DNA of 64,000 nt, taken from a bacterium (GTDB lineage Bacteria > Actinomycetota > Thermoleophilia > Solirubrobacterales > Solirubrobacteraceae). The translations under genes were made by a program, and so were the position numbers. Shown here in pieces: positions 39,850 to 58,300 of this stretch; the first letter of the stretch is position 1; every line of letters starts with the position of its first letter. The notes under the pieces were generated by a model, which saw only the letters and a program-made list of their open reading frames with translations, searched no databases and was not told the origin of the DNA. Location: the NCBI GenBank assembly GCA_021323635.1, contig JAJPKQ010000022.1, positions 1 through 64,000 of the forward strand. Reading direction: 5' to 3'.

Positions 39850-40506
39850 TCATGGTGACACAACGCCTGCGCCCTCCCCTGCGGCGCCCTGCTGCAGCGC
39901 GCCGGCAGCGATCGCGATCAGCTCGACGCAGCGCTCCAGCGCAAGCGCCGTGGAGTCGATCATCAGCTGGTAGAGGGATGGGTCGCGCATGTCTGCGCCG
40001 TAGAAGCGCTGGGCGTATGCGCCGTGCGCGCGGTCGCTCTCGCGCAGCCGACGCTCGGCGTCTGCGCGGTCGAGCCCCTCGAGCGCCATCGCCTGAGCCA
40101 CCCGCCGCTCGCGCGGCCCGTCCAGCCGCACGCGCAGCACGCCGGGCTCCTCGCGCAGGATGAAGGCGGCGGCGCGACCGAGGATCACTCCCTGGCCGCT
40201 CGCCGCCTGGCGTCGCACGACCTCCTCGGTGGCCTGCTGGAAGTCCTCGGCGAGCGGCCCCTCCGCGGGCAGGGCGGCCGGCACATAGGCGTCCGCCGCG
40301 CGAAAGGAGGCAAGCAGGCGCGCCAGCAGACCCGCCTCGGCGCGCTCATCGCAGCGCTCGGCCTCATCGAGCGGAACCTGCAGCTGAGCGGCGACCGAGG
40401 CTGGGATCGCGCGATCAAGGAAGGGCACGCCCAGGCGCCTGGCGAGCGCCGGGGCGATGCGGCTGCCGCCGGCGCCATAGCTCGCTGAGATCGCGACCAC
40501 CGTCAT
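39850..40506 (-). CDS. Cytidylate kinase-like family protein
   Basis: VVAISASYGAGGSRIAPALARRLGVPFLDRAI; GVILGRAAAFILREEPGVLRVRLDGPRERR. Confidence 0.82.
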   Translation of the reverse strand: MTVVAISASYGAGGSRIAPALARRLGVPFLDRAIPASVAAQLQVPLDEAERCDERAEAGLLARLLASFRAADAYVPAALPAEGPLAEDFQQATEEVVRRQAASGQGVILGRAAAFILREEPGVLRVRLDGPRERRVAQAMALEGLDRADAERRLRESDRAHGAYAQRFYGADMRDPSLYQLMIDSTALALERCVELIAIAAGALQQGAAGEGAGVVSP

Positions 40507-42281
40507 CTTCCCCTCCTCGCGGGGGCTCTCGCGCGCGCGCTGCGCTCAGGCTGCGAGCCGCCCGGACCGGCGGCGATCGCCGCGTCCGCGGGGATCTGCA
40601 TGCCCCTTTTGCGCTCTGCATCCGGCCCGTAGTGGTAGCGGCCGCCGCGCAGCCAGAAGGCGCCGGCGGCGATCAGGCAGCCTGCCGCGGCAAAGGCGAA
40701 GACCGCGCCCAGCGCGCTTGCGAAGGGGCCGGTCAGCAGGTGGGGAAAGAACGCGCGCCCGGTCAGCGTCGCGAGCTGGCCGGCGGGCAGCGAGTGCGCA
40801 AGCGAGCCCCCAAGCAGGATCTTGACCGGGTTGTAGCCCAGAAAGGCCGCAAAGAGGCTTGCGACGGGCGGCAGGTGGGCGAGCGCCGCCGCCTGCGTCG
40901 CGGGCACGCCATGTGCCTGCAGGCCGCTGCGCAGCGCACCCGGCAGGCTCGATGAGAGCGCGGCGATCAGGATCGAGAAGAAGATGCCGATCGAGAGCAC
41001 CATCGCGGCATTCTGAAAGGTTGCGTTCATCCCCGCGCCCGCGCCGCGGTCGGAGGGCGGCAGGCTGTTCATCACCCCGGCGCGGTTCGGAGAGGCGAAG
41101 AGCCCCATGCCGATCCCGTTCACCACCAGCAGCGCCGCGAAGTCGGGGTAGTAGAAGCTCACGGGCAGCAGCGTCAGCAGGGCGAAGGAGAGCGCCGCGA
41201 GGAGCATGCCACCGGTGGCAAATGGCCGCGCGCCGAAACGGTCGGAGAGATAGCCCGAGAGCGGCCCCGCGAACAGGAAGCCGACCGTCAGCGGCAGCAT
41301 GTAGATGCCCGCCCACAGCGGCGTTTCCGCGAAGGAGTACCCGTGCAGGGGCAGCCAGATCCCCTGCAGCCAGATGATCAGCACGAACTGCATGCCGCCG
41401 CGGGCGATCGCGGAGAGCAGCGTCGCCAGGTTGCCGGCGGCGAAGGCGCGGATGCGAAAGAGACGCAGGTGGAACATCGGCTCTGCCACCTTGAGCTCGA
41501 TCATGCCGAAGAGCGCCAGCACCGCCACGCCGCCGATGATCTCACCGAGCACGCTCGGCGAGCTCCAGCTCATGCTCTGGCGGCCATAGGGCTGGATGCC
41601 GTAGGTGATGCCCACCATCAGCGAGATCAGGCCGGCCGCAAAGGTCAAGTTACCCGCCCAGTCGATGCGCACATGCGAGCGTGGACGCAGGTCGCGCAGC
41701 TTCAGGTAGGCCCAAGCCGTCCCGAACAGCCCGACCGGGACGGAGACCAGGAAGACCAACCGCCAGTCCACGGGCGCCAGCACGCCGCCGATGATCAGCC
41801 CCAGGAACGAGCCCGCGATCGCCGCGACCCCGTTGATGCCGAGCGCGAGCCCGCGCTGGTGCACCGGGAAGGCATCGGTGAGGATCGCTGCGGAGTTGGC
41901 GAAGAGCATCGCGCCGCCCACCCCCTGGCCCACACGCATCCCGATCAGCCACAGCGCACCGCCCGATCCGCGCATCGGCGTCGCGGCAAGGAGAATCGAG
42001 AAGAGCGTGAAGACCGCAAAGCCGAGGTTGTAGATGCGCACCCGCCCATACATGTCGCCGAGGCGGCCGAGCGCGACGACAAGCACGGCGGTGACGATCA
42101 GAAAGCCAAGGATCATCCACAGCAGGTAGTTGGTGTTGCCGGGCGCAAGCGGGTCGATGTGGATGCCCCGGAAGATGTCGGGCAGCGCAATCAGGATGAT
42201 CGAGGAGTTGATCGTCGCCAATAGCATCCCGATCGTCGTGTTGGAGAGCGCAATCCACTTGTAGTGGGGCGCTCCCGCCAT
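40503..42281 (-). CDS. MFS transporter (DHA2/EmrB-type)
   Basis: MAGAPHYKWIALSNTTIGMLLATINSSIILIALPDIFRGI; LGRLGDMYGRVRIYNLGF; about 14 TM. Confidence 0.9.
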   Translation of the reverse strand: MAGAPHYKWIALSNTTIGMLLATINSSIILIALPDIFRGIHIDPLAPGNTNYLLWMILGFLIVTAVLVVALGRLGDMYGRVRIYNLGFAVFTLFSILLAATPMRGSGGALWLIGMRVGQGVGGAMLFANSAAILTDAFPVHQRGLALGINGVAAIAGSFLGLIIGGVLAPVDWRLVFLVSVPVGLFGTAWAYLKLRDLRPRSHVRIDWAGNLTFAAGLISLMVGITYGIQPYGRQSMSWSSPSVLGEIIGGVAVLALFGMIELKVAEPMFHLRLFRIRAFAAGNLATLLSAIARGGMQFVLIIWLQGIWLPLHGYSFAETPLWAGIYMLPLTVGFLFAGPLSGYLSDRFGARPFATGGMLLAALSFALLTLLPVSFYYPDFAALLVVNGIGMGLFASPNRAGVMNSLPPSDRGAGAGMNATFQNAAMVLSIGIFFSILIAALSSSLPGALRSGLQAHGVPATQAAALAHLPPVASLFAAFLGYNPVKILLGGSLAHSLPAGQLATLTGRAFFPHLLTGPFASALGAVFAFAAAGCLIAAGAFWLRGGRYHYGPDAERKRGMQIPADAAIAAGPGGSQPERSARARAPARRGR

Positions 42282-43954
42282 CACTGCCGTCCGCGTGCTC
42301 GCCGATAGCGGCGGATCAGCTCGCTCGTGGAGGAGTCGTGGCGCTGGTCTGAGCCCTCGGCGGCGCTGAGCTCTGCCGCGATGCGCCGGGCAAGGATCTT
42401 GCCCAGCTCCACGCCCCACTGATCAAAGGAGTCGATGCCCCAGAGCACCCCCTGGGTGAATACGGAGTGCTCGTAGAGGGCAACCAGCCGCCCGAGGTTG
42501 CGCGGGTCGAGGCGCTCCAGCAGCAGCGTGCTGGTCGGGCGATTGCCCGCGCAGACGCGGTGTGGGATCTGCTGCTCGGGGGCGCCTTCCTCGCGCAGCT
42601 GTTGCGCGGAGCGCCCGAAGGCAAGCGCCTCCCCCTGGGCGAAGAGGTTTGCGATCAGCAGGTCGTGCTGATCGGCGTGCTCTGAGAGCGGCTCAGCGAA
42701 GCCGATCAGGTCGCAGGGCACGATCCGCGTGCCCTGATGCAGGAGCTGGTAGAAGGCGTGCTGTCCGTTCGTGCCCGGCTGTCCCCAGACGATCGCGCCG
42801 GTGCCGTGAGCGACCGGGTCGCCAGCGAGCGTCACGTGCTTGCCGTTGCTCTCCATCTCCAGCTGCTGCAGATAGGCCGGAAAGCGCTCCAGGCGTGCCG
42901 CATAGGGGAGGATCGCTCTGCTTTCGGCACCCACGATGTCGGCGTTCCAGACGGCAAGCAGCCCCATCAGCGCAGGAATGTTGCGCTCCAGCGTCGTGCT
43001 GCGGAAATGCTCGTCCACGTCGCGGAAGCCCGCGAGCATCTCCGCGAAGCGCTCGGGGCCGATGAGGGCCATCAGCGAGAGGCCGATCGCCGAGTCGTAG
43101 GAGTAGCGCCCGCCGACCCACTCCCAGATCGGGAGCATGTTGCGCTCCTCGATCCCGAACTCCCGGACGCCCTGCGCGTTGGTGGAGACCGCGACAAAGT
43201 GCGCAGCTACCGCCTCCTCGCCCGCGCCGAGGCCCTCAAGCAGCCAGCGACGCGCAGCGGTCGCGTTGACAAGCGTCTCCTGCGTGTGCCAGCTCTTGGA
43301 GCAGACGACAAAGAGCGTCCGCGCCGGATCGAGGCCGAGGAGCGCGCGCCGCAGGTCCGCGCCATCGACGTTGGAGACGAAGCGCACCGCGATCTCAGCG
43401 ACTGCGAAGTCAGCAAGCGCTTCGCAGGCCATCGCCGGGCCCAGATGCGAGCCGCCGATGCCGATGTTCACGACGCTCGTGATGCGCTCGCCGGTGTGTC
43501 CGCGCCAGCTGCCGGTGTGCAGCGCGCGCACGAGCTCCTCGCAGCGGGCGCGCACGGCGTGCACCTCGGCCACGACATCGCTGCCATCGACGAGGATCGG
43601 CTCGCTCGCGGGCGCGCGCAGCGCGATGTGCAGCGCCGGGCGATCCTCGGAGACGTTGATCCGCTGCGCGGCGAACATCGCCTCGATGCGCTCCGGCAGG
43701 CCGCTTGCGCGCGCCAGCGCGCAGAGGGAGTCGATCGCCTCAGCGTCGATGCGCTGCTTGGAGTAGTCGAGGTAGATGCCCGCTCCCTCCGCCGTCAGCC
43801 GTCTGCCGCGCTCCGGCTGCTCGGCGAAGAGCTCAGCGAGCGTCTTCGCGCGCAGCCTCAGCCAGTGGCGGGCGAGCGCATCCCACGCTGCGCTCGTGGC
43901 GGCTGATTCGGTGGCTGCTGCGGAGAAGCTCAGCGTGCTTGCCTGCGCTTTCAC
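42281..43954 (-). CDS. pgi: Glucose-6-phosphate isomerase (GTG start)
   Basis: VNIGIGGSHLGPAMACEAL, VCSKSWHTQETLVNA, VGGRYSYDSAIGLSL, WGIDSFDQWGVELGK. Confidence 0.95.
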   Translation of the reverse strand: MKAQASTLSFSAAATESAATSAAWDALARHWLRLRAKTLAELFAEQPERGRRLTAEGAGIYLDYSKQRIDAEAIDSLCALARASGLPERIEAMFAAQRINVSEDRPALHIALRAPASEPILVDGSDVVAEVHAVRARCEELVRALHTGSWRGHTGERITSVVNIGIGGSHLGPAMACEALADFAVAEIAVRFVSNVDGADLRRALLGLDPARTLFVVCSKSWHTQETLVNATAARRWLLEGLGAGEEAVAAHFVAVSTNAQGVREFGIEERNMLPIWEWVGGRYSYDSAIGLSLMALIGPERFAEMLAGFRDVDEHFRSTTLERNIPALMGLLAVWNADIVGAESRAILPYAARLERFPAYLQQLEMESNGKHVTLAGDPVAHGTGAIVWGQPGTNGQHAFYQLLHQGTRIVPCDLIGFAEPLSEHADQHDLLIANLFAQGEALAFGRSAQQLREEGAPEQQIPHRVCAGNRPTSTLLLERLDPRNLGRLVALYEHSVFTQGVLWGIDSFDQWGVELGKILARRIAAELSAAEGSDQRHDSSTSELIRRYRRARGRQ

Positions 43955-45467
43955 GGTCGCTCAGGTCGGGAACTGCCGGCGCCAACTCTACTAGCGGCTC
44001 CTGCGTGGCAGCACGGGGCGCGCCGGCGCTCGGCGCTGCGGGGTGGCGCAGGAAGCGCGCTGCGATCAGCGCGCCGGCGAGGGAGAGCGCTGCTGCAAGC
44101 AGGAAGGCGCGGTCGAAGCCCGCGCTGAGCGCGGCGCCGGCGCCTCCAGGAGCGCTCGCGGCGGGCGCCGCTACGCTCGCTAAGACAGCTAGCCCGACCG
44201 CGCCGCCCATCAGCCGTGCGGTGTTCAGCAGCCCCGAGCCGAGCCCCGCCAGGGAGGCGGGCAGCCCAGCCGTTGCCAGGAGCGTCGTCGGCACGAGCGC
44301 AAGCCCCATCCCGATCGCCGCCAGCATCGAGCCGGGGAGCACCGCGAGCAGGTAGTCGGCGTGGGGGGCGAGATCGCGCAGCAACAGCATCCCGAGCGCG
44401 GTGAGCGCCAGCCCGGCGACGATCGGCGCACGCGCGGGCAGCGAGCGCAGCAGGCGCGGGGCAAGCGCTGAGGCGGTGAAGATCGCGAGCGTCATCGGCA
44501 GGCACGCCAGCCCGGTCAGCAGGGGGTCGAAGCCGCTGACGTCCTGCAGGAAGAGCGTCAGGAAGTACCACAGCGGGAAGGATGCGGCGTAGAGGAGGAA
44601 CATCACGGCATTGGCGCCGCGCAGGCGGCCGTGGGTGAGCGCGTGCAGCGGCACGAGCGGCGCGCTTGCGATACGAGCCTCCACAAAGAGGAAGGCCAGG
44701 AGCGTGCCGAGCGATAGCGCCAGCGGGATCAGCACCGCTGCTGCCCCGAAACCGAGCGTCGCCGCGCGCGTGGCGCCGTAGGTGGCAAGCGCCAGGCTTG
44801 CCGTGATCAGCACCGCACCTGCGAGGTCAAACCCGCCCCTGCGCTCGCTTGGGCGGTCGCGCTCGATCACGATCAGCCCGGCGATCAGCACCGCGGCGCC
44901 GATCGGGACGTTGACCGCAAAGATCGCGCGCCAGCCGAGCGCCTGCGTGAGGATGCCGCCGAGCAGCGCGCCGCTTGAGCCGCCCAGGCCGCCGACCGCG
45001 CCCCACAGGGCGACGCCGCGGTTGCGCTCCGGACCCTCCGGGAGCGAGCTGGTGATGATCGAGAGGCTTGCCGGCGAGAGCAGCGCGCCCGCGAGCCCCT
45101 GCAGCGCGCGGGCGGAGACCAGCGTGGCCTGAGAGTCAGAGAGCGCGCAGACGATCGAGCAGAGCACGAACATCGCGACGCCTCCGAGCAGCAGGCGGCG
45201 TCGCCCAAAGAGGTCCGCGGCGCGCCCGCCAAGCATCAGAAAGCCCGCGAAGCCGATCGTGTAGGCGTTGACGACCCACTGCAGGGCGCCCGGCGAGAAG
45301 CGCAGCCCTCGCCCGATCGAGGGCAGCGCGATGTTGACGATCGAGACGTCGAGGATGACCATGAACTGGGCGACGCAGACAAGCGCGATCAGGAGCGTCG
45401 TGCTCGTCCCCGGGCGCTTCGCGCCGACGCCCTCTGTCAAATGATGTTGCTCTGCCCGTGCATTCAT
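43833..45467 (-). CDS. MFS drug-efflux-type transporter (DHA2/QacA-like)
   Basis: VAQFMVILDVSIVNIALPSIGRGL, GRAADLFGRRRLLLGG, LQGLAGALLSPASLSII; polytopic. Confidence 0.9.
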   Translation of the reverse strand: MNARAEQHHLTEGVGAKRPGTSTTLLIALVCVAQFMVILDVSIVNIALPSIGRGLRFSPGALQWVVNAYTIGFAGFLMLGGRAADLFGRRRLLLGGVAMFVLCSIVCALSDSQATLVSARALQGLAGALLSPASLSIITSSLPEGPERNRGVALWGAVGGLGGSSGALLGGILTQALGWRAIFAVNVPIGAAVLIAGLIVIERDRPSERRGGFDLAGAVLITASLALATYGATRAATLGFGAAAVLIPLALSLGTLLAFLFVEARIASAPLVPLHALTHGRLRGANAVMFLLYAASFPLWYFLTLFLQDVSGFDPLLTGLACLPMTLAIFTASALAPRLLRSLPARAPIVAGLALTALGMLLLRDLAPHADYLLAVLPGSMLAAIGMGLALVPTTLLATAGLPASLAGLGSGLLNTARLMGGAVGLAVLASVAAPAASAPGGAGAALSAGFDRAFLLAAALSLAGALIAARFLRHPAAPSAGAPRAATQEPLVELAPAVPDLSDRESAGKHAELLRSSHRISRHERSVGCARPPLAEAAREDAR

Positions 45468-45490
45468 GCGAGGCAGTATGGCCTCTTTTC

Positions 45491-45524
45491 TATCCGGGTA
45501 GAAGATGTTTTGTTATCCTGGTAG
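45491..45524. promoter_or_regulatory. Putative operator: two direct copies of TATCCnGGTAG
   Basis: TATCCGGGTAG at 45491-45501 and TATCCTGGTAG at 45514-45524 (23-bp register), each near-palindromic, between divergent MFS and HTH genes. Confidence 0.6.
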
Positions 45525-45529
45525 TCGCT

Positions 45530-46465
45530 GTGTCAGGATCACCCCCTCAGGCGAGCGCGCACAGCGCCCGCGCGCGCAAGCACGCGCGGCGGCGCGACGA
45601 GCTTGCGGACTTCCTGCGCCGCCGGCGCGAAGCGCTGCGTCCAGAGGAGCTCGGGCTGCCCGCGCTCGGGCGACGGCGCACGCCGGGGCTGCGCCGCGAG
45701 GAGGTCGCCCAGCTGGCGGGCGTGGGCGTCACCTGGTACACCTGGCTTGAGCAGGGGCGCGACGTCCGCGCCTCACTGGATGTGCTCGAGGCGATCGCGC
45801 GCGCGCTGCGCCTGACCCCGGCGGAGCGCACGCACCTGATCGTTCTCGGCCGCGGCGAGCCGCCGCCACCGCAGCCGGCCGGCTGCGAGCGCCCTTCGCC
45901 GGTGCTGCGGCGGATGCTTCGCAGCCTCGAGCCCTCCCCCGCCTTCATCCTCGGTCGCCGCTGGGACTACCTTGACTGGAACCGCGCCGCGTGCGCCCTC
46001 TTCGGTGATCTTGATCGGATCCCGCGCGAGCGGCGCAACCACATCTGGCTGAACTTCACCGACCCGGCAAGGCGCGAGCTGATCGCCGATTGGGAGCGCT
46101 ACGCACGCCACATGGTCGCGAAGCTGCGAGCGGACACCTCCCAGCTGGTGGGCGACCCGCAGTTCGAGGAGCTGATCGGCGCGCTGCGCAGCGCCAGCCC
46201 GGAGTTCTGCCGCTACTGGAGCCGCCACGAGGTCGCCTGGCGCGGCGAGGGCGTCTCCGAGCTTCGCCACCCCAAGCTGGGTGCCCTGCGCTTTGACCGC
46301 GCCGTCTTCAGCCCGCTGGAGGCGCCTGAGCAGCGGCTCGTCCTCTACACCCCCCACCCGCAGAGCGACACCGCCGCCAAGATGCGTCGGCTGCTTGCGC
46401 GCCAGCTGGCGCAGCGCCGGCGCGAAGGCGTGCTCGCCGCGCGCTGCGCGCCCCAGACGGCGTAG
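45530..46465 (+). CDS. HTH transcriptional regulator with MmyB-like ligand-binding domain
   Basis: LGLPALGRRRTPGLRREEVAQLAGVGVTWYTWLEQGRDVRAS; ILGRRWDYLDWNRAACALFGD; NHIWLNFTDP; HPKLGALRFDRAVF. Confidence 0.9.
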   Translation: MSGSPPQASAHSARARKHARRRDELADFLRRRREALRPEELGLPALGRRRTPGLRREEVAQLAGVGVTWYTWLEQGRDVRASLDVLEAIARALRLTPAERTHLIVLGRGEPPPPQPAGCERPSPVLRRMLRSLEPSPAFILGRRWDYLDWNRAACALFGDLDRIPRERRNHIWLNFTDPARRELIADWERYARHMVAKLRADTSQLVGDPQFEELIGALRSASPEFCRYWSRHEVAWRGEGVSELRHPKLGALRFDRAVFSPLEAPEQRLVLYTPHPQSDTAAKMRRLLARQLAQRRREGVLAARCAPQTA

Positions 46466-46474
46466 GATCGCCTG

Positions 46475-46981
46475 ATGGCAGCCGCAAGCGCAACGCTCGT
46501 CAAGTGGATGTCGGTGCTGGACGCCAACAACGCCGGGCGCATCCACGGCGGCACCGTGATGAAGCTCTGCGACGAAGCCGCGGGGCTCGCGGCGATTCGG
46601 CATGCCCGGCGGCCTGCGGTCACCGCTGCTGTCGACCGCCTGACCTTCCTGCATCCGGTCTTCATCGGCGAGGTGCTAACGCTGCGCGCATCGGTCAACG
46701 CGGCGTGGGAGACCTCGATGGAGGTCGGCGTGCGCGTGGAGTCCGAAAACCCGCTCACAGGCGAGGTTCGCCACACCTCCTCCGCCTACCTGACGATGGT
46801 CGCGGTCGATGAGCACGGGAACCCCGCAACCGTGCCGCCGCTGGTGGCCGAGGGCGAGGAGGAGGCCCAGCGCGAGCGCGCGGCACAGGAGCGGCGCGAG
46901 CGGCGGCTGGCCGAGCGGGCACGCGAGCGCTCGCGTGAGGATCAGTCGGCGGAGCGCCGCCAGCACACCCAGCCGACGTAG
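46475..46981 (+). CDS. Acyl-CoA thioesterase, hotdog fold
   Basis: DANNAGRIHGGTVMKLCDEAAGLAAIRHARRPAVTAAVDRLTFLHPVFIGEVLTL. Confidence 0.87.
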   Translation: MAAASATLVKWMSVLDANNAGRIHGGTVMKLCDEAAGLAAIRHARRPAVTAAVDRLTFLHPVFIGEVLTLRASVNAAWETSMEVGVRVESENPLTGEVRHTSSAYLTMVAVDEHGNPATVPPLVAEGEEEAQRERAAQERRERRLAERARERSREDQSAERRQHTQPT

Positions 46982-47490
46982 GGCTCCGGGAGCTCAAGCT
47001 CGCGCGCGGCCCAAACGCCGGCTAGGCGCAGCGCGGGGTCCTGCTCGCTGCAGGGCCAGCGCAGCGGCGATTCCAGCCGGCGGGGGTCATACGCAAGCGC
47101 GTCGCCAAGCGCCTTGGCGAGCGCCTCCTTGGCCGACCACAGGCGCGTCGCGGCGCGCGCGCTCTCGCTGCCGCGCAGGCCCAGCTGCAGCGCATCGGCG
47201 CTCTCCTGGGGCGTGCAGATCGAGTCCGCGAAGCCCTCCGGAACGGGCGCGATCTCCTCGATGTCGATGCCCACAGCGCTGCTGTGGCTTGCGATCAGGG
47301 CATACGGGTAGCTGTAGGAGCGGGATCGAAGGGCACCAGCGGCGTGCTCGCAGCGTCTACGCGTGATCTCGCGCAGGCCATCGGCGGCAAGCTCACGCCC
47401 GGCGCGCAGCAGCGTCACCAGCGGCTCCTGAGCACCGAGCGGCAGCTCGGTGGCCTCCAACAGCGCCTCAGGCTGCGACAACAGGCGCAC
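46942..47490 (-). CDS. Sfp-type 4'-phosphopantetheinyl transferase
   Basis: AIASHSSAVGIDIEEIAPV and RLWSAKEALAKALGDAL; start overlaps end of the NRPS gene. Confidence 0.85.
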   Translation of the reverse strand: MRLLSQPEALLEATELPLGAQEPLVTLLRAGRELAADGLREITRRRCEHAAGALRSRSYSYPYALIASHSSAVGIDIEEIAPVPEGFADSICTPQESADALQLGLRGSESARAATRLWSAKEALAKALGDALAYDPRRLESPLRWPCSEQDPALRLAGVWAARELELPEPYVGWVCWRRSAD

Positions 47491-50400
47491 CGTGCCAGCG
47501 GGTTCCTGCGGGAAGGCGCTCGCCGCGCATCACGACCGAGCGCCCAGCGACGCTCGCGCGCTCCCCGATCTCTGTCTGCGGCAGCGCTGCCGCGCTTGGC
47601 CCGAGCGTCGCCCCGGCGCCGATCCGCGTCGGCCCGATCTGCATCACGCGATCATGGAAAAGGTGCGTCTCAACGACCGCGTGGCGGTTGATCGCGCAGC
47701 CCTCGCCGAGCGTCGCCTGCTCGAACTCCGTGATCGTCAGCGTTTCGCACCAGACATCGCTGCCGACCCGCGTGCCCATCAGGCGCAGGTAGGCCGTCAT
47801 CAGCGGGCTGCCGAGAGCCAGATTGAGCAGCCAGGCGCCGGCTAGCTGCTCCTGGCAGGAGTTGACGATCTCATCGCGCCAGACAAAGCTCGACCACAGC
47901 GGATGCTCGCCGGCCTGATAGCGGCCGATCAGAAGCCATTTGGCGGCGATCGTCAGCGCGCAGGCGACGATGCCCCCCGCAAGGATCAGCGCCGGGCCGA
48001 CCGCAAACATCGCCGCCAGACCGAGGTGCACGCCCGTGCTGTCAAGCGCCCAGAACTCAAGCGATCCGATCGCCGTTGCAAGCATCGCGGGCCCGAAGAT
48101 GCGCACGAGCTCGATCGCGCCGCGCGCGATCACCAGCCGCCTGGGCGGATCGGTGGTGCGTGCGCGGTCGCTCTGCACGGGCGCGCGCGGGATCTCGAGC
48201 GCGGGCGCCCCGAACCAGGCCGTGCCCTCGGGCGGGCGCCTGGGCGGCGTCGACTGAACGCCGACGAGGCTGCCCGGTCCGATCCGCGTGCCGCCGGAAA
48301 GTATCGCGCCGTTGCCGAGGAAGCTCTGTGCCCCGATCGCGATCGGGGCGATCTGAAGCCAGCCGGAGCGAGCGCGCGCGCCTGCGAAGACGACGTCGTC
48401 GGCCGCAAAGCTCTTCTCCGCAAAGGTCGTCTGGCGGGTCAGCCCAACCGCTGTCGAGATCTCCGCGCGCCGGCCGACCTTCACGCCCGCGAGGCGCAGC
48501 CAGTAGGGGGTGTAGATCGAGGAGTAGAGCGGGAAGAGGATGTCGCGAGCGCCTGCCATCAGCGACTCCGCAAGCCACGAGGCCCACGCAGCGGCGCCAT
48601 CCGCCGCGTGTGTGCCTGGCCTGATCAGCGGGGAGAGCGCCCGGAAGATCAGCGCGACAAGCAGCGCATAGGTGAGGATGAAGAGCACGGTCATCGCCGG
48701 CACCAGCTCGAGCGCAAGCACCACGACGTTGGTGGGCGTCGTTTCCGCAGGGCGCAGCAGCAGCAGCAGCGCAAGCCCCGGGATCGCCGCCGCGAGCACG
48801 ATCAGGCTCTCGCCGAGCATCGCGACCGCGAACATCGCCTTCCAGAAGCCGCGGTGGCGCCCGGCCGGCGGATCGCCCTCCGGCCAGCCCTCGCCTGCCG
48901 CGCCGACCCTGCGCGCCGGGCAGCCCGCCCAGCGCTCGCCTGCAGGCACCTCGCCGCTGATCAGCGCACCGGGCTCCACCTCCGCGCCGGCGCCGACCCG
49001 TGCTCCGGGCATCAGCAGCGCGCGCGTGCCGATGCGCGCGTGAGCCCCGATCTCGATCTCGCCGATCACCAGCTCCGATCCCTCGATCCACCAGCCGTGC
49101 ACGTCGCAGTCGTCCTCGAGCGTGGCGCCGGGCCCGATCCTCACGAGGCTCGTCGGCGGGGGAATCGTTCCCAGGCGTGCGCCCGCGCCGATGCTGTGCC
49201 CGAGCAGCCGGGCGTAGCGCGCCGCCCAGGGGGTGCCTGCAAGGCCCTCGAGCGCAAAGCCCTCCGCGAGGCGCTCTAACGTCCAGACGCGAAGCGTCAG
49301 GAAGGAGTGGCGCGGGTAGCGGCCGGGCTTCAGATTCGCCAGCAGCAGCCGTCGCGCGATGGCGAGGATCAGCGCGCGGCCGGGGCGGGAGGCAAGCAGC
49401 AGCCAGCCGCCGACCAGCAGCGGCCAGCTGATCTGCGGGCCGAGCGCGCCGGGGTAGATGCGGTCGAGGATCAGCGCGCCCAGAATCCACGGCGGCGTGG
49501 TGAAGACAATGAGAGCAAAGAGCGCGCTCAGATGGGCGGCGGCGAACCCACGCCTGCGTGCGAGGCCCGCCCCATGCGATCGGGCGTGCCGATCGGAGCC
49601 GATCTCCTCCAGCCGCTGTGCGAGCGCTGCGATCGTGCGATGGTTGTAGATGTCGGCAACCGCGGCTGCGGGGTAGCGTGAGCGCAGCGCCGATGCGAGC
49701 TTCGCCGCCGCCAGCGAGCCGCCGCCGAGCTCGAAGAAGTCGCTCTGCGCAGAGAGCGGGATCGGCCCGAGCTGCTCGCGAAAGCGCTCCGCCAGCCACG
49801 CCTGCGCAGGCGTGAGGCCATCCTCGGCAGGCGGCTGCCTGCCGTCGACCTGCTCAACCGCTCCGCCGCCGCCGTGCGCGGCGCGATCGCGCCCGTGAGC
49901 GTCCGTCGCTGCGGGCGGCGGCCAGGGCAGCGCCCTGCGGTCGACCTTGCCTGAGGTCGAGCGGGGGAGCTCCTGCAGGCGCACGATCTGCGGGACGATC
50001 CCGGCGGGGAGGCGCTCTTGCGCGAAGCGGCGCACCGCGCCGGCGTCGAAGTCGCCGAGCAGGTAGGCGACAAGGACCCTGTTGCCGGCTGCGCTCTCGC
50101 GCACCGCGCAGGCTGCGGCCTTCACGCCCGGCGCCGCTGCGAAGCAGGCATCGACCTCGCCCAGCTCGATGCGCCGCCCGCCGATCTTCACCTGGTCGTC
50201 GCGGCGCCCGACGAACTGCAGCCCGTCGATCGTCTCGCGAACGATGTCCCCAGAGCGGTAGGCGCGCTGGAAGCCGACCGCGGGCAGCGGAGCAAAGCGC
50301 TCGGCGTCAAGGTCCCGGTCGAGGTAGCGCGCGAGGCCGACGCCTGCGATCACCAGCTCGCCGGCCTCGCCGATCGCAACCGGGCGCCCCTGCTCGTCGA

Positions 50401-51427
50401 CGATCGCGGTCTCCCAGCCGGGCAGCGGCCAGCCGATCGTGACCGCCCGCGCAGGCTCGCAGCGCGCCGCCGTGCTGACGACGGTCGCCTCGGTCGGGCC
50501 GTAGGTGTTCCATACCTCGCGGCGCTCGGCAAGCCGCCAGGCCAGCTGCTCCGGGCAGGCCTCCCCACCCAGGATCAGCAGCCGCACCGTCTGCAGGTCC
50601 TCCTCAGCGAGCAGCGCGGCAAGGCTGGGCACGGTCGAGAGCACCGTGATCTGCTGCTCGCGCAAAAACGGCCCGAGCTCCGCTCCCGCCCGCACGAGCG
50701 CGCGCGGCGCCGGGACGAGCGTCGCACCGTGGCGCCACGCCAGCCAAATCTCCTCACAGCTTGCGTCGAAGGCGATCGAGAGGCCCGCGAGCACGCGATC
50801 TCCGACCGACAGCGAGAAGAGCTGCGCCTCGGCGTCGACGAAGGCGGCGGCGGCGCGATGGCTGACAGCGACGCCCTTGGGCGCGCCGGTGGAGCCGGAG
50901 GTGAAGATGACCCAGGCGTCATCATCGGGCGTCGGCTCGCGCGCCTCCCCGTGCGGCTCGCCCGTCCACTCGATCGCAAGGCCATCGCGCACCACCGCGC
51001 AGACCTCAGCGGTGGCGATTATCTCCTTGGCGCGCGCAGGCGGCTCCTCGGCGTCGATCGGAACATATGCGGCGCCCGACCAGAGCGTGCCGAGCACGGC
51101 GATGTAGAGCTCTGCGCCGCCGCTGGCAAGCTGAACAGCTACGCGATCGCCGGGGCCGACGCCCTGATCCGCCAGGCGGCGCCCGAGCGTGGCGGCGGCC
51201 TCCGCAAGCTCCCGATAGGTGAGCGTCTGGTCGGGCGCCTGGAGCGCGGGTGCCTCGCTGCAGCGCACGGCGCTCGCTCCGAAGATGTCAAGCAGCGTGC
51301 GCGGTCGCGGAGCGCTCGCCCCGCCGGCGGGTATCGGCGAGGCCTGCGTGGAGTGCAGCGCCCGCGCAGTGAGCTTTGTCGAGGATGAAGAGAGGGGTTT
51401 GCCCATGGCGCCGTTTCCAACACTCAT
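47468..51427 (-). CDS. Pls/PosA-type membrane nonribosomal peptide synthetase (A-T-[TM pair-LbetaH] x3)
   Basis: Adenylation motifs (VIFTSGSTGAPKGVAVSH, NTYGPTEATVV, YRSGDIV, GRRDDQVKIGGRRIELGEVD, STSGKVDRRAL), carrier FFELGGGSLAAAKL, then three hydrophobic TM pairs alternating with three hexapeptide-like domains. Confidence 0.92.
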   Translation of the reverse strand: MSVGNGAMGKPLSSSSTKLTARALHSTQASPIPAGGASAPRPRTLLDIFGASAVRCSEAPALQAPDQTLTYRELAEAAATLGRRLADQGVGPGDRVAVQLASGGAELYIAVLGTLWSGAAYVPIDAEEPPARAKEIIATAEVCAVVRDGLAIEWTGEPHGEAREPTPDDDAWVIFTSGSTGAPKGVAVSHRAAAAFVDAEAQLFSLSVGDRVLAGLSIAFDASCEEIWLAWRHGATLVPAPRALVRAGAELGPFLREQQITVLSTVPSLAALLAEEDLQTVRLLILGGEACPEQLAWRLAERREVWNTYGPTEATVVSTAARCEPARAVTIGWPLPGWETAIVDEQGRPVAIGEAGELVIAGVGLARYLDRDLDAERFAPLPAVGFQRAYRSGDIVRETIDGLQFVGRRDDQVKIGGRRIELGEVDACFAAAPGVKAAACAVRESAAGNRVLVAYLLGDFDAGAVRRFAQERLPAGIVPQIVRLQELPRSTSGKVDRRALPWPPPAATDAHGRDRAAHGGGGAVEQVDGRQPPAEDGLTPAQAWLAERFREQLGPIPLSAQSDFFELGGGSLAAAKLASALRSRYPAAAVADIYNHRTIAALAQRLEEIGSDRHARSHGAGLARRRGFAAAHLSALFALIVFTTPPWILGALILDRIYPGALGPQISWPLLVGGWLLLASRPGRALILAIARRLLLANLKPGRYPRHSFLTLRVWTLERLAEGFALEGLAGTPWAARYARLLGHSIGAGARLGTIPPPTSLVRIGPGATLEDDCDVHGWWIEGSELVIGEIEIGAHARIGTRALLMPGARVGAGAEVEPGALISGEVPAGERWAGCPARRVGAAGEGWPEGDPPAGRHRGFWKAMFAVAMLGESLIVLAAAIPGLALLLLLRPAETTPTNVVVLALELVPAMTVLFILTYALLVALIFRALSPLIRPGTHAADGAAAWASWLAESLMAGARDILFPLYSSIYTPYWLRLAGVKVGRRAEISTAVGLTRQTTFAEKSFAADDVVFAGARARSGWLQIAPIAIGAQSFLGNGAILSGGTRIGPGSLVGVQSTPPRRPPEGTAWFGAPALEIPRAPVQSDRARTTDPPRRLVIARGAIELVRIFGPAMLATAIGSLEFWALDSTGVHLGLAAMFAVGPALILAGGIVACALTIAAKWLLIGRYQAGEHPLWSSFVWRDEIVNSCQEQLAGAWLLNLALGSPLMTAYLRLMGTRVGSDVWCETLTITEFEQATLGEGCAINRHAVVETHLFHDRVMQIGPTRIGAGATLGPSAAALPQTEIGERASVAGRSVVMRGERLPAGTRWHGAPVVAA

Positions 51428-51590: not shown

Positions 51591-53204
51591 TTAGGCAGCG
51601 TGCGAGCGCAGCGCGGCTGAGCCGAGCGGCTGCTCGACACGCGCGGCCGGCGGGCTCTCCGGCTGCTCGAAAGCGGCCGGCTCCGGGGCGCCATCGGCCG
51701 GCAGCGCCCATGGCAGCGGCGACCCTGACTTCTGTAGGCGCAGCACGCCGTCAGCGAAGTCAAAGCGCCGAAAGTCGATGAGGTCGCGGAGGTAGTTCTG
51801 ACGCAGCCGCCAGGGCGGCCTGGCGCCCTGCTTGGGAAAGCGGTCGATCGCGCGCTGCACGTAGCCGGCGGCAAGATCGATCAGCGGCTCGCGCGCGAGC
51901 GCCGGATCCTCATTGTGCGGGTAGCAGATCGCGTCGCGCCCGCGCTCCATGCGCGCAAGCAGGCGACAGACGAAGCTCGCCACCAGATCGCTCTTGAGCG
52001 TCCAGGAGGCGTTGGTGTAGCCGACGATGAAGGCGGCGTTGGGTACGTCTGCGAACATCATGCCGCGGTAGGCGAGCTGCTTTGAGAGCTCAAGGCGCTC
52101 GCCGTCGCGGTAGAGCTCGACGCCGCCCAGCGCAAGCAGGTTGAGCCCGGTCGCAAGCACGACCAGCTCAGCCTCCAAGTGGCGCCCGGAGCGCAGCAGG
52201 ATTCCCTTATCGGTGAAGCGCTCGATGCGGTCGGTGACGACCTGTGCCGATCCGTCTGCAAGCGCCCTGAAGAGGTCGCCGTCGGGCACCAGGCACAGAC
52301 GCTGATCCCACGGCTGATAAGGGGGGCGAAAATGCTCGTCGATCGGGAAGCCCGCGGGCAGCTGGCGCTCGAGCCCCTTGCGGATCAGCGCCTTCGCGAG
52401 CGCGGGGCGGCGGCGCGCAAGCTGGAAGGATCCGATCGTGAGCAGGATGTTCTTGGCGCGCACAAGGCGATATGCGAGCCCGCGCGGAAGGCGGGCGCGC
52501 AGGCGGCGCGCGATCGGGTCGCGCTCGGGCAGCGAGAGGATGTAGGTGGGGGTGCGCTGGAGCATCGTCACCTGCGCGCCGCGCTGCGCGAGCGCGGGAA
52601 CGAGCGTCACCGCGGTCGCTCCGGAGCCCACCACGATCACGCGCTTGCCCGTACAGTCGAGATCCTCGGGCCAGTGCTGGGGGTGGATCACCGTGCCGCC
52701 GTAGGAGGAGAGGCCCGGGAGCTCCGGGGTGAAGCCTTCCTCATAGCGGTAGTAGCCCGTGCAGAAGAGCAGGAAGCGGGCGCTGTAGCGCTCGAGCACG
52801 CCCTCCCCCTGCCCGGCGACCTCGAGCTCCCAGCGGGCCTCGCGCGAGGACCAGCGCGCGGAGCGCACGCGCCTGCCGAAGCGCACCTTGGCGTCGACGC
52901 CGTGCTCGCGCGCCGTCTCCTTGATGTAGGAGCGGATGCGCTCGCCCGGGGCGATCGAGAGGTCGTCATCCCAGGGCCGGAAGGGATAGCCGAGGGTGTA
53001 CATGTCCGAGTCTGAGCGGATCCCCGGGTAGCGAAAGAGATCCCAGGTCCCGCCGATCGCAGCGCGCGCCTCCAGAATCGCAAAGCTTTCGCGCGGCCGC
53101 TCGCGGGCAAGACGACACGCGGCGCCGATCCCTGAGAGCCCGGCGCCGATGATCAGCACGTCGAAGTCCTCACGGGCACGTGTGGAGGCTGCAGCTGCGC
53201 TCAA
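51591..53204 (-). CDS. Flavin-containing Baeyer-Villiger-type monooxygenase (EthA-like), TTG start
   Basis: DVLIIGAGLSGIGAACRLARE, GGTWDLFRYPGIRSDSDMYTLGYPFRPW, VIVVGSGATAVTLVPAL, YTNASWTLKSDL; RBS ggaaaggaac. Confidence 0.9.
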   Translation of the reverse strand: MSAAAASTRAREDFDVLIIGAGLSGIGAACRLARERPRESFAILEARAAIGGTWDLFRYPGIRSDSDMYTLGYPFRPWDDDLSIAPGERIRSYIKETAREHGVDAKVRFGRRVRSARWSSREARWELEVAGQGEGVLERYSARFLLFCTGYYRYEEGFTPELPGLSSYGGTVIHPQHWPEDLDCTGKRVIVVGSGATAVTLVPALAQRGAQVTMLQRTPTYILSLPERDPIARRLRARLPRGLAYRLVRAKNILLTIGSFQLARRRPALAKALIRKGLERQLPAGFPIDEHFRPPYQPWDQRLCLVPDGDLFRALADGSAQVVTDRIERFTDKGILLRSGRHLEAELVVLATGLNLLALGGVELYRDGERLELSKQLAYRGMMFADVPNAAFIVGYTNASWTLKSDLVASFVCRLLARMERGRDAICYPHNEDPALAREPLIDLAAGYVQRAIDRFPKQGARPPWRLRQNYLRDLIDFRRFDFADGVLRLQKSGSPLPWALPADGAPEPAAFEQPESPPAARVEQPLGSAALRSHAA

Positions 53205-53228
53205 TGCTGTTCCTTTCCGCAGATTCAG

Positions 53229-53265
53229 ATTCTGACCGGTATGCGAGTAGTATACTGCCCGGTAT
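53229..53265. promoter_or_regulatory. Putative tandem operator in BVMO/P450 divergent promoter
   Basis: ATTCTGACCGGTAT (53229-53242) and ATACTGCCCGGTAT (53252-53265), 12/14 identical, 23-bp register; second is an ATAC-N6-GTAT inverted repeat. Confidence 0.65.
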
Positions 53266-54607
53266 GCCAGTTGCCGACCAGAGGGCGCATGCCGCTCTGC
53301 CCCCCGGGCCGCAGCTGCCGCGGGCGCTGCAGACCGCGATCTGGATGCGTCGCGCCCAGGGCTTGCTCGCGTGGTCGCGCCGGCGCTATGGCGACACCTT
53401 CACACTGCGCATCGCCCATGAGGGCACCTGGGTCGTCACCTGCAACCTGGAGGCAGTCAAGAGCGTCTTCACCGGCGACCCGCGGATCCTGCATGCGGGC
53501 GAGGGCAACAGCGTGCTGCTGCCGGTGCTCGGGCCCAACTCCGTGCTGCTGCTCGACGAGGAGGAGCACATGCGCCAGCGCAAGCTGCTGCTGCCGCCCT
53601 TCCACGGCGCGCGCATGAAGCGCTATGAGGCGCTGATGCAAGAGATCGCCGCGGCGGAGATCGAGCGCTGGCGCCCGGGCGAGGTGCGCCAGCTGCGCCC
53701 CCGCATGCAGGCGCTCACGCTCGAGGTGATCCTGCGCGCGGTGTTCGGCGTCGCCGAGGGGCAGCGCCTGGAGGAGCTGCGGCGCGCGCTGCGGCGCCTG
53801 GTCGCCTATGCGACCAACCCACGGGCGGGCATCATGCTGGCGGTTGTCGGGCCCGCTCGCGGCGAGCGCATCCGCGGTTTCCGCGAGCGCCTGCGCACGG
53901 TGGACGAGCTGCTGTTCGCGGAGATCGCCGAGCGGCGCGCGCTCGCGGAGATCGCCGAGCGCGAGGACATCATGTCGCTGCTGCTCCAGGCTCGTGACGA
54001 GGATGGCGCGCCGATGAGCGACAAGGAGGTGCGCGACGAGCTCTTGACGCTGCTGCTCGCAGGACATGAGACGACCGCCAACGCGCTTGCCTGGGCGGTC
54101 GAGCGCCTCGCGCGCCACCCAGATGCCACAGCGCGCCTGCAGGAGGAGGTCGACGCCGGCGAGAGCGCCTATCTGCAGGCGGTGGTGCAGGAGATCCTGC
54201 GCCTGCGACCGGTCATCTCAGTGGTGGCTCGACGCCTGAAGGCTCCGTTCCGGATCGGCGCGTGGGAGCTGCCCGCAGGTGTCGGGATCGTGCCCTCCAT
54301 CTACCTGATGCACCGACGCGCGGACATCTACCCGGAGCCCGAGCGCTTTCGCCCGGAGCGCTTCTTGGAGCAGCCCCCGGGGACCTACACATGGATCCCG
54401 TTCGGCGGTGGCGTCCGCCGCTGCCTGGGGGCGGCCTTCGCGCAGTTTGAGATGGAGGTGGTGCTGCGCGAGCTGATCGCCAGACGCAGCCTTGCGCCTG
54501 CCCGCGCGCAGAGCGAGCGCGTCCTGCGCCGTGCCTTCACGGAGACCCCCTCCCGCGATGCGGAGGTTCTGATCGGCAGCGCAGAGCGCATGAGGGTCGC
54601 CCGGTGA
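53264..54607 (+). CDS. Cytochrome P450
   Basis: LLLAGHETTANALAW I-helix, EILRLRP (ExxR), PERFRPERF, FGGGVRRCLGAAFA heme loop. Confidence 0.94.
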   Translation: MPVADQRAHAALPPGPQLPRALQTAIWMRRAQGLLAWSRRRYGDTFTLRIAHEGTWVVTCNLEAVKSVFTGDPRILHAGEGNSVLLPVLGPNSVLLLDEEEHMRQRKLLLPPFHGARMKRYEALMQEIAAAEIERWRPGEVRQLRPRMQALTLEVILRAVFGVAEGQRLEELRRALRRLVAYATNPRAGIMLAVVGPARGERIRGFRERLRTVDELLFAEIAERRALAEIAEREDIMSLLLQARDEDGAPMSDKEVRDELLTLLLAGHETTANALAWAVERLARHPDATARLQEEVDAGESAYLQAVVQEILRLRPVISVVARRLKAPFRIGAWELPAGVGIVPSIYLMHRRADIYPEPERFRPERFLEQPPGTYTWIPFGGGVRRCLGAAFAQFEMEVVLRELIARRSLAPARAQSERVLRRAFTETPSRDAEVLIGSAERMRVAR

Positions 54608-55272
54608 GGGGACGCAGGCGCGAGCGCAAGCTCGCACCGACCCGCCAGGAGCGCAAGGCCGCAACACGCGCGGCGCTGCTTGCCGCCGCCGGGGAAGCGA
54701 TCTGCGAGCGCGGCTTCGACGGCGCATCGGTCGAGCTGATCGCCAAGGCCGCGGGCTACACCAAGGGCGCCTTCTACGCCAGCTTCAGCAGCAAGGAGGA
54801 GCTCTTCCTGGCGATCCTCGATGAGCGCTTTGCAGCGCAGATCGCGCGTCTGGAGCGCGCCCTGCAGGGCGCGGGCGACCCCGCTACGGAGGTTCGTGCC
54901 GCAACCGAGGGATTTCTGGAGCAGGTGAGCTCCGATCCGAGCTGGCCGCGCCTCTACCAGGAGTTCGCAACGCACGCCGCCCGCAACCCGGCGTTTCGCA
55001 AGGAGCTGGTCGCCCGCCAGCGACGGCTGCGCGGGGCGATGGCGGAGATCTTCGCGCGCTGGAGCGCTCGCCGCGGCATCGAGCCGCCGCTGCCGCCCGC
55101 CGAGATCGCGGCGATGAGCTATTGGATGGCCGAGGGCTTCCTGCTTCAGCGCACGCTCGACCGCGAGCTCGAGGATCGGCTCTACGTCGAGCTGGTCGAG
55201 ACCTTCCTGGCCGGGCTGATGGCCAAGGTGGCGGAGTCCGACCGCGGCGAGCGGCCGCTCGCGCAGGTCTAG
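54604..55272 (+). CDS. TetR family transcriptional regulator
   Basis: RQERKAATRAALLAAAGEAICERGFDGASVELIAKAAGYTKGAFYASFSSKEELFLAIL; overlaps P450 stop codon. Confidence 0.93.
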   Translation: MRGRRRERKLAPTRQERKAATRAALLAAAGEAICERGFDGASVELIAKAAGYTKGAFYASFSSKEELFLAILDERFAAQIARLERALQGAGDPATEVRAATEGFLEQVSSDPSWPRLYQEFATHAARNPAFRKELVARQRRLRGAMAEIFARWSARRGIEPPLPPAEIAAMSYWMAEGFLLQRTLDRELEDRLYVELVETFLAGLMAKVAESDRGERPLAQV

Positions 55273-55377: not shown

Positions 55378-58300
55378 ATGATGGAGCAGCTGCACACAGG
55401 GGGAGGAACAAGCCGCAGGGCACAGGGACGCCGGCTGCTGGCGGCGCTTGCGACAAGCACTGGGCTGCTGCTCGGGCTGGGCGCCCCGGCTGCGCTGGCG
55501 AGCCAGCTTGCGGTCGAGATCGTCAAGCCGGGCAAGTCGCCGAGCGGCGAACCGCTGCCCGGCGAAGGGGCTGAAGGCAAAGCGACGGTGCCGGCGCATG
55601 AAAAGGTCCCCTTCAAGATCGAATTCACGGACGTGCTTGAGAACCCCGAACCGTGCCCTCCCTGCACATCTGAAGCGACGGTCGAATGGCACTTCGGCGA
55701 CGGCAGTGAACCGGCACTCGAGCATGTGACGGTGAACGCCAACCCGAACGAAACCTACTACGCAGAAACCACGCACGAATTCTCGACCCCCGGCAAGAGC
55801 TACACCGCCGAAGTGCTTGTCAAGGTCCCATATGGAGGAGAATCCACCGAGCGGATAACGATTGAAACCGGCGCGGCGCTGCTCACCTCGCTGGCGGCCA
55901 GCCAATACTTCCCATACGTCGGCGAACCGGTCACCTTCACGGCCAAGCAGGAACTAAACGACTACAAGCCGCCGCTCTCCTACCACTTCCTGCTGAACGG
56001 CAACCCGGTGCAGGAAGTCACGATCGACGAAGGCGCGCCTGCCCCGGGGACCTACGAACAAACCTTCACGAGCACCGGCGCCCAGACGGTCGCGGTGAAG
56101 GCGAGCGCGGAAGCAAGCACCGAAGCCAAGCGACTTGAAACTGAAGCGGCCACGACGGTCGATGTCGTGCCGCATCTCGGCGGGGCGGTGACGGTCAGCC
56201 CGCCCAACCCCTATGTCGGCGAAACGGTCACCTTCTCGGCGCTTGCCGAAGGAGGCGAGCCGCCCTACACCTACTCGGGCTGGCTGCTCGACGGCGGCCC
56301 CTTCCCGGGCGCAGGCACAGCCACCGCGCCGGAGGGCACGCGCGCAAGCGAGCAGGCCAAGTTCACGACCACTGGCACGCACACGGTCACGCTTGGCGTC
56401 AGCGACTCGAGCAGGCCGAAGCGCAGCGAGAGCCTCACCGCGAGCGTGAGCGTGGATCAGCCGCTTGTCGCCTCGATCACGCCCGCCGGCGAAGCCTACG
56501 ACGAGAACCGCCCGCTGAGCTTTGAAGCGCACGTTGCGGGGGGCACCCCGCCTTATGAAGAGCGCTGGCGTCTTTTCCCGATCGGGTACCCCGAATACAC
56601 GACGGCTGCGGGCGCCGGCGCAACCTTCTCCCACACCTTCAACAGTCATTTCGAATCCTCTGGCGCCTACGGCCTGGTGCTCTCCGCGAACGACTCCGAC
56701 GGCCACATCACGACGATCGAAAAGCGCATCCTGGCGCAGCCGTGCATACCGACGGTCGAATTCGGCCTGATCCAGCTCGCCTCGAAGACAGGCTGCCTGC
56801 AGCAGAGCACCGGCGCTGAGGGCGTGAAGCGCTGGTCAACAGAAACGGAAGTGCTGCTCAACGGCATCCCGCTGCAGCCGATCGCCGGACATCCCTTGGT
56901 CCTGGAAGCGCCGAGCAGCGCGCACCCGGGAGGCCTGCTTGAAGTGGGCAACGTCAACCTCACGATCGTCGGCACCGAGCTTGACTTCGCGCTGCTGCAC
57001 GAAAAGCCGCTCAAGTGGGAGCTGCCGAAGGGCGAAAAGGGCGAAGAAAAGTCGCTTGTGACGCTGTCGGTGCCCGCGGGCCTCAAGCTGCTGGGGCTCT
57101 CGGTCGGCGGCTCCATCGGCGTCAAGCTCGGCTACGGCACCGATGGCGAACACTTCGCGACCTTCCCGCTGACGATCGAACTGCCGAAGATCTTCAAGAG
57201 CGGCCCGAACAAGGAAGCGGGCGGTCTGACAAGCGAAGCGGCGCTGTCCGTGGGCGTGAGCGCGAGCGGGCTCGCCGCGGTGCACTTCAAGGGGCTGCGC
57301 GTCGAACTCAACGAAGCGTGGCTCGGCAAGCTGCAGATCAAGGATCTCTGCCTGGCCTTCATACCCGGTGGCAGCGAAGCGATCTCCGAATGCGCCAAGC
57401 CCAGCGTCGGCGGCAAGGAATTCATCGAATGCCAGAACACGAGCACCACCGCCGATCGCTGGTCGGGAACCGCGGTCGTCGTGCTGCCGACGACGTCAAA
57501 GACCGAAATCGGCCTCTTTGGCGGCCTCGTAGGCAGTCAGATCGCCTACCTGGGTGGATTTGTCGAAACAAACCCGGGGCTGCCGATCGTCGATGACGTC
57601 TTTCTCGACCGCGTGGGGATCGGCGTCTGCATCAACCCGCCGCCCTTCAAACTCAAGGGCGAAGTGGGAGTCGATGCGATGCCGGTCGGAAGCAAGCCGA
57701 CGCTGAAGGTCGACGGCTACTTCCAGTACACCAACTCCTACACCGACTCCGAAGGCCACGAACATCCCTGGTCGGTTGAACTCGGCGGCTCGGTGGCGGT
57801 GTATGAAAAGGAAATCGGCGGCGGTGACGTCGTCGTGAACTCAACCGGCGAACTTGAATTCGCCCTGCATGCCGAGCTTGAGCTCTACAGCGTCGTGTCG
57901 ATAAACGGCCATGTGGACGGCTGGATCGAGCCCACCGAAAAGCTCTTCAACATCAACGGCGGCATCGAAGCGTGCCTGCTGGGCGCGTGCATCGGCGCAG
58001 ACGGGGAGGTCTCCTCGACGGGCATCGCCGGCTGCGGCAAGATCCTGGGCCTCGAAGCGGGCTTCGGCTATCGCTGGGGCAGCGGCCATGTGAGCACCTT
58101 TGACGGCTGCTCCTTCGGCGAATACGAAGCTACAAAGGCATCGCTGGCGGACTTCGCCCCCAATCTCACCCGGACGCTTGCGATCGCGCCGCACACCAAG
58201 GCGATCGCGCTGCGCGTGGGCGGCCTCGGCGGCCCGCCCGGGATAACCTTGCGCGGCCCTGGCGGGCAGACGATCGTGATCCCAGCGGGCGCGAGCAAGG

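What the first reader, a model, noticed from the sequence alone, without database searches (positions are those of the whole stretch)
47468..51427. Pls-type membrane NRPS with a lysine-like adenylation code: candidate poly-lysine (or basic homopolymer) synthetase outside the usual hosts
The architecture matches the epsilon-poly-L-lysine synthetase family: one adenylation domain, one carrier protein, then three TM pairs alternating with three soluble LbetaH-like domains, and no condensation or thioesterase domain. Aligning by eye to GrsA positions 235/236/239/278/299/301/322/330/331/517 gives D-A-E-S-I-G-T-V-V-K. This differs at two positions from the bacitracin-synthetase Lys code as I recall it (DAESIGSVAK). 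E239 fits a basic side chain. If correct, this lineage makes a cationic isopeptide homopolymer or a related product.
Basis: partly seen in the sequence, partly recalled or inferred. Interest (0 to 1): 0.85.

Follow-up and report, generated by a model that had tools for sequence, protein, structure and literature searches.

The report
Poly-lysine synthetase with its own activator
This is an ordinary-looking relative of the Streptomyces enzyme that makes the food preservative epsilon-poly-lysine. It sits in a poorly studied soil lineage of actinobacteria, where it is always followed by the small enzyme needed to switch it on.

Summary
ORF 47468-51427 (- strand, 1319 aa) is a full-length Pls/PosA-family synthetase: A domain, carrier protein, then three repeats of a membrane-helix pair plus a left-handed beta-helix lobe. 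Its A-domain code is DAESIGTVVK. That is not two changes away from the lysine code: it is identical at all ten positions to S. albulus epsilon-poly-L-lysine synthetase (PDB 7WEW), and differs from poly-ornithine PosA (DMEHNGTVSK). The tree places it in a Thermoleophilia clade, sister to Actinomycetes Pls. "Outside the usual hosts" is only partly right: same phylum, different class, and antiSMASH NAPAA clusters are already reported for Solirubrobacter. A compact Sfp-type phosphopantetheinyl transferase (46942-47490, -) overlaps the 3' end of pls by 23 bp. In 299 class genomes the two genes co-occur exactly (12 with both, 0 with one), always adjacent; the M1 peptidase (PldII) that follows pls in 71 of 73 Actinomycetes loci is absent. 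Most likely the operon makes epsilon-poly-L-lysine, with its own carrier-priming enzyme and without the usual degrading enzyme. New member of a known kind, with a clade-specific operon. No product was tested.

The parts
47468..51427 (-). pls: epsilon-poly-L-lysine-synthetase-like NRPS, 1319 aa
   Evidence: TIGR02353 544 bits; best PDB hit 7wew at E 1e-161; tree
49907..51319 (-). adenylation domain, residues 37-507; code DAESIGTVVK, identical to S. albulus Pls
49610..49798 (-). carrier (PP-binding) domain, residues 544-606; Ser in DFFELGGGSL
   Evidence: PF00550 40 bits; motif
47471..49594 (-). C-terminal membrane polymerase part: three units of membrane-helix pair plus left-handed beta-helix lobe; lobe 3 carries THLFHDR
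   Evidence: TIGR02353, alignment A1, AlphaFold2 pLDDT 88, Foldseek, motif count
46942..47490 (-). compact Sfp-type 4'-phosphopantetheinyl transferase, 182 aa, GTG start, overlaps the 3' end of pls by 23 bp
   Evidence: PF01648 58 bits; GIDIE and WSAKEALAK motifs; AlphaFold2 pLDDT 90; Foldseek best hit Sfp-CoA-PCP complex 4MRT at E 1.8e-8; adjacency and co-occurrence

Best explanation
A two-gene operon for epsilon-poly-L-lysine. The translationally coupled phosphopantetheinyl transferase puts the phosphopantetheine arm on the Pls carrier domain. The A domain adenylates L-lysine and loads it as a thioester. The membrane part, with three beta-helix lobes, joins the carrier-bound lysyl carboxylate to the epsilon-amine of another lysine over and over and releases the chain, probably across the membrane. 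Shown by sequence: family, code, domain anatomy, gene overlap and co-occurrence. Inferred from characterised Pls: lysine activation, isopeptide linkage, polymer product, export. Inferred here without a direct precedent: that this transferase is dedicated to Pls.
For: The ten code residues equal those of S. albulus Pls; PMC10522769 reports that lysine-activating members have Ala at the second code position. The A domain is 57.6% identical to 7WEW, against 37-41% between 7WEW and the PosA, Rhizobium and Azospirillum enzymes. TIGR02353 is over its cut-off. In the tree 14 Thermoleophilia rows form one clade (support 100), sister to the Actinomycetes Pls clade (99), with the proteobacterial PosA-like enzymes outside. 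A Corynebacterium Pls only 51% identical to Streptomyces Pls made epsilon-poly-lysine when expressed in S. coelicolor (PMC8117764). No lysine 2,3-aminomutase was found in the genome, and no diaminobutyrate aminotransferase over cut-off, so a supply of beta-lysine or Dab is not evident. The transferase gene is directly 3' of pls in all 16 Thermoleophilia loci with 3' sequence examined (for 15 of them, for the window). In 299 class genomes 12 have both genes and none has a strong match to only one (Fisher p about 1e-21, not corrected for relatedness).
Against: No product, expression or activity data. The code is a correlate of substrate; chain length and linkage are set by the membrane part, which is 40% identical or less to most Actinomycetes members. 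No PldII-type peptidase is adjacent or found elsewhere in the genome, so the usual self-protection partner is missing.
Confidence: 0.8

Rival explanations
1. The enzyme polymerises another diamino acid, such as ornithine, Dab or beta-lysine, into a related cationic isopeptide.
For: Family members with these substrates exist (PMC10522769), and PosA also activates lysine weakly.
Against: PosA has Met at the second code position and DMEHNGTVSK overall, whereas this enzyme has the lysine code. No aminomutase, and no Dab aminotransferase over cut-off, were found. It falls with Pls in the tree.
Confidence: 0.1
2. The enzyme is a Pls homologue by descent but makes only short oligomers or attaches lysine to another acceptor, so that it does not act as an antimicrobial homopolymer synthetase.
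For: The partner PldII peptidase is absent and the membrane part is diverged from Actinomycetes Pls.
Against: All three repeat units and the THLFHDR motif are kept, the frame is intact, and the operon is conserved across the class.
Confidence: 0.08
3. For the neighbour only: the transferase next to pls is a general housekeeping carrier-protein transferase that is merely linked to it.
For: It has the standard catalytic motifs.
Against: It is present only where pls is present, and the genome has a second, full-length Sfp-type transferase elsewhere.
Confidence: 0.07

Closest known systems
epsilon-poly-L-lysine synthetase Pls (Streptomyces albulus; A domain PDB 7WEW)
   Same: Same domain order, same ten-residue A-domain code, 57.6% A-domain identity, TIGR02353 C-terminal part.
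   Different: Sister clade from class Thermoleophilia; 45% identical over the whole protein to a Streptomyces Pls (L129); followed by a phosphopantetheinyl transferase rather than by the M1 peptidase PldII.
delta-poly-L-ornithine synthetase PosA (Acinetobacter baumannii)
   Same: Same architecture and same family.
   Different: 32% identity overall; code DMEHNGTVSK against DAESIGTVVK.
Rhizobium Pls/PosA-like gene with adjacent PPTase (Rhizobium sp. CCGE532 plasmid, L131)
   Same: A phosphopantetheinyl transferase gene directly follows the synthetase.
   Different: Code DLEDIGTVVK, 31% identity, alphaproteobacterial, longer transferase (205 aa).
Sfp-type 4'-phosphopantetheinyl transferase
   Same: Predicted fold and catalytic motifs; best fold match is the Sfp-CoA-PCP complex 4MRT.
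   Different: Only 182 aa, with 73 residues before GxDxE; no match to the Pfam 4PPT_N domain that the other transferase of the genome has.

Membership tests
Pls/PosA family (TIGR02353) | C-terminal NRPS_term_dom above curated cut-off | tested here: met
   544 bits against 423
Pls/PosA family (TIGR02353) | A-T-TM/C1-TM/C2-TM/C3 order, no condensation or thioesterase domain | tested here: met
epsilon-poly-L-lysine synthetase (Pls) | A-domain code of the characterised enzyme | tested here: met
   DAESIGTVVK at all ten positions in both
epsilon-poly-L-lysine synthetase (Pls) | Groups with characterised-type Pls and apart from PosA-type enzymes | tested here: met
   Sister clade to Actinomycetes Pls including L129, whose A domain is 89% identical to 7WEW
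epsilon-poly-L-lysine synthetase (Pls) | Operon with an M1-type epsilon-PL-degrading peptidase (PldII); usual context, not part of the enzyme and not a defining feature | tested here: not met
   No peptidase adjacent, none found in the genome
epsilon-poly-L-lysine synthetase (Pls) | Activates L-lysine and makes epsilon-linked polymer | not testable with these tools
   needs biochemistry
delta-poly-L-ornithine synthetase (PosA) | Code DMEHNGTVSK with Met at the second position | tested here: not met
Sfp-type PPTase | PF01648 with GxDxE and WxxKEA motifs; Sfp-like fold | tested here: met
Sfp-type PPTase | Full N-terminal half (4PPT_N, PF17837) | tested here: not met
   No Pfam match; the N-terminal part is short. 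Filed as Sfp-like, not as a typical Sfp

The most novel reading that the evidence does not exclude
Thermoleophilia carry a self-contained poly-lysine operon in which a compact, Pls-dedicated phosphopantetheinyl transferase takes the place of the degrading peptidase. Polymer making would then be controlled by carrier priming, and self-protection would work differently from Streptomyces.
Probability: 0.4. Interest if true: 0.45.

Novelty: new member of a known kind. Interest (0 to 1): 0.33.

Why it matters
It extends experimentally understood poly-lysine synthesis, by sequence, to a deep soil lineage with few cultured members. It also supplies a two-gene cassette (synthetase plus its presumed own priming enzyme) that could ease heterologous expression. 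The lack of PldII raises a concrete question: how these cells tolerate a membrane-active polycation. The enzyme itself is not surprising.

Tried and rejected
Reading the + strand of the coordinates gave only interrupted frames. The + strand ORF 46809-47366 has no family match and lies over the - strand transferase gene, so I reject it as a gene. A PldII homologue in the genome was looked for and not found. Lysine 2,3-aminomutase (TIGR00238) was not found, and diaminobutyrate aminotransferase (TIGR00709) not above cut-off. A PDB sequence search with the C-terminal part gave only short hexapeptide-repeat matches, and Foldseek only single-lobe acetyltransferases, so no solved structure of the polymerase part was found. 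Weak PPTase matches 1.7-3.0 kb beyond pls in 23 Actinomycetes loci are too weak to call the same gene. The flavin monooxygenase and P450 genes 5' of pls have no same-family neighbour in the other pls loci and are left out of the system. The promoter and terminator scan found nothing above chance.

Full report
Observation. The ORF 47468-51427 is on the minus strand, starts with ATG and encodes 1319 aa without a stop. Pfam gives AMP-binding, PP-binding and Hexapep. NCBIfam gives TIGR02353 (Pls/PosA family) at 544 bits over a cut-off of 423. [quoted passage not shown] It is the only Pls/PosA gene of the genome over the cut-off (the other hits are weak and short).

Specificity code. The GrsA sequence was confirmed in PDB numbering and used to pick positions 235, 236, 239, 278, 299, 301, 322, 330, 331 and 517 in an alignment of the window protein, 7WEW and 92 relatives. 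The window code is DAESIGTVVK, identical to 7WEW and to nearly all relatives (two have V for I; one is a fragment that lacks the region). In a separate alignment Acinetobacter PosA gives DMEHNGTVSK, which is the code printed in PMC10522769, and Rhizobium and Azospirillum members give DLEDIGTVVK and DLEDIGSVVK. PMC10522769 reports that the second code position (Ala in lysine enzymes, Met in PosA) helps set substrate length, and that D217 and E221 are essential in PosA. All these features point to lysine here.

Anatomy. An AlphaFold2 model of the C-terminal 708 residues from 22 aligned relatives has mean pLDDT 88 and pTM 0.88. It shows three tandem units, each with long helices (hydropathy peaks at residues 633-655, 861-936 and 1131-1168) followed by a strand-rich lobe. 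Foldseek against the PDB matches single lobes to maltose, galactoside and serine acetyltransferases, which are left-handed beta-helix enzymes (own knowledge). The third lobe holds THLFHDR, kept in 87 of 93 sequences, with THLFEDR or THLYEDR in the three proteobacterial enzymes. That it is a catalytic site is inference.

Phylogeny and host. The closest named relatives are Solirubrobacterales MAGs, Patulibacter and Conexibacter. A tree of 39 sequences puts 14 Thermoleophilia rows in one clade (100), sister to 22 Actinomycetes rows (99), with three proteobacterial enzymes outside (quick method, SH-aLRT support only). L129 in the Actinomycetes clade has an A domain 89% identical to 7WEW. The gene is patchy: 11 of 101 related genomes hold a match over the cut-off, and 12 of 299 genomes drawn from the class do by a profile of the C-terminal part. 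Close relatives with the same operon, and a tree that follows class, argue against contamination of this draft genome.

The missed neighbour. In the window a 182-aa gene (46942-47490, minus strand, GTG) overlaps the 3' end of pls by 23 bp. It matches PF01648 (58 bits), keeps GxDxE and WxxKEALxK, and is modelled at pLDDT 90, with Sfp in complex with CoA and a carrier protein as best fold match. It is short: 73 residues precede GxDxE in the window protein, about 50 in some relatives, and the N-terminal Pfam domain of ordinary Sfp-type enzymes is not detected, whereas the second transferase of the genome has it.

Linkage. All 16 Thermoleophilia loci with sequence 3' of pls (the window, and 15 others) have this gene directly downstream on the same strand, and none has the M1 peptidase there. 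Of 73 Actinomycetes loci with 3' sequence, 71 have the M1 peptidase. In related genomes strong matches to the transferase occur only in pls-positive genomes, next to pls (G010 has pls cut off at a contig end and no match). In 299 class genomes the same 12 carry both genes, always adjacent, and no genome has a strong match to one alone (two others have weak matches near 1e-11). One genome (G282) has a second copy at a contig end where a second pls would be cut off. G006 has two pls genes, each with its own transferase. The count treats related genomes as independent, so the Fisher value of 1e-21 overstates significance. A Rhizobium Pls/PosA-like gene is also followed by an annotated transferase, so the pairing arose more than once or is old.

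What is missing. A PldII-type peptidase was not found anywhere in the genome. PMC8117764 describes PldII as an epsilon-PL-degrading enzyme with a postulated self-protection role. Lysine 2,3-aminomutase is not found, and diaminobutyrate aminotransferase not over its cut-off, which disfavours beta-lysine and Dab polymers.

Literature. Pls homologues across phyla are described in PMC10522769 and, in coryneforms, in PMC8117764. antiSMASH NAPAA clusters are listed for Solirubrobacter in PMC10722151. I found no paper in the held open library that describes a phosphopantetheinyl transferase paired with pls; subscription papers were not searchable.

Verdict. A genuine Pls-type synthetase, most likely for epsilon-poly-L-lysine, in a class where this was already predictable; new member of a known kind. 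The modest new element is the clade-wide pls-transferase operon without PldII.

Noticed in passing
window 51591-55272: A flavin monooxygenase-like gene (-) divergent from a cytochrome P450 gene (+) and a TetR regulator gene (+), just 5' of pls; not conserved next to pls in relatives.
   Followed up: partly
window 40503-45467: Two MFS transporter genes that cluster together by BLAST flank a phosphoglucose isomerase gene, all on the - strand, beside an MmyB-like regulator gene at 45458-46465 (+).
   Followed up: no
window 55378-59103: A 1241-aa protein with PKD domains, probably a surface or secreted protein.
   Followed up: no
genome G006 (L118, L119): One relative of the same genus carries two distinct pls genes, each with its own transferase gene.
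   Followed up: partly
plasmid records H13-H17 and H3: Pls/PosA-type genes occur on plasmids of Mycobacterium avium and Rhodococcus opacus; the R. opacus copy (L134) has no M1 peptidase match within 4 kb 3' of it.
   Followed up: partly
L017, L022, L041 and 20 other Actinomycetes loci: A weak phosphopantetheinyl transferase match lies 1.7-3.0 kb beyond pls, after the M1 peptidase and mostly on the opposite strand.
   Followed up: no
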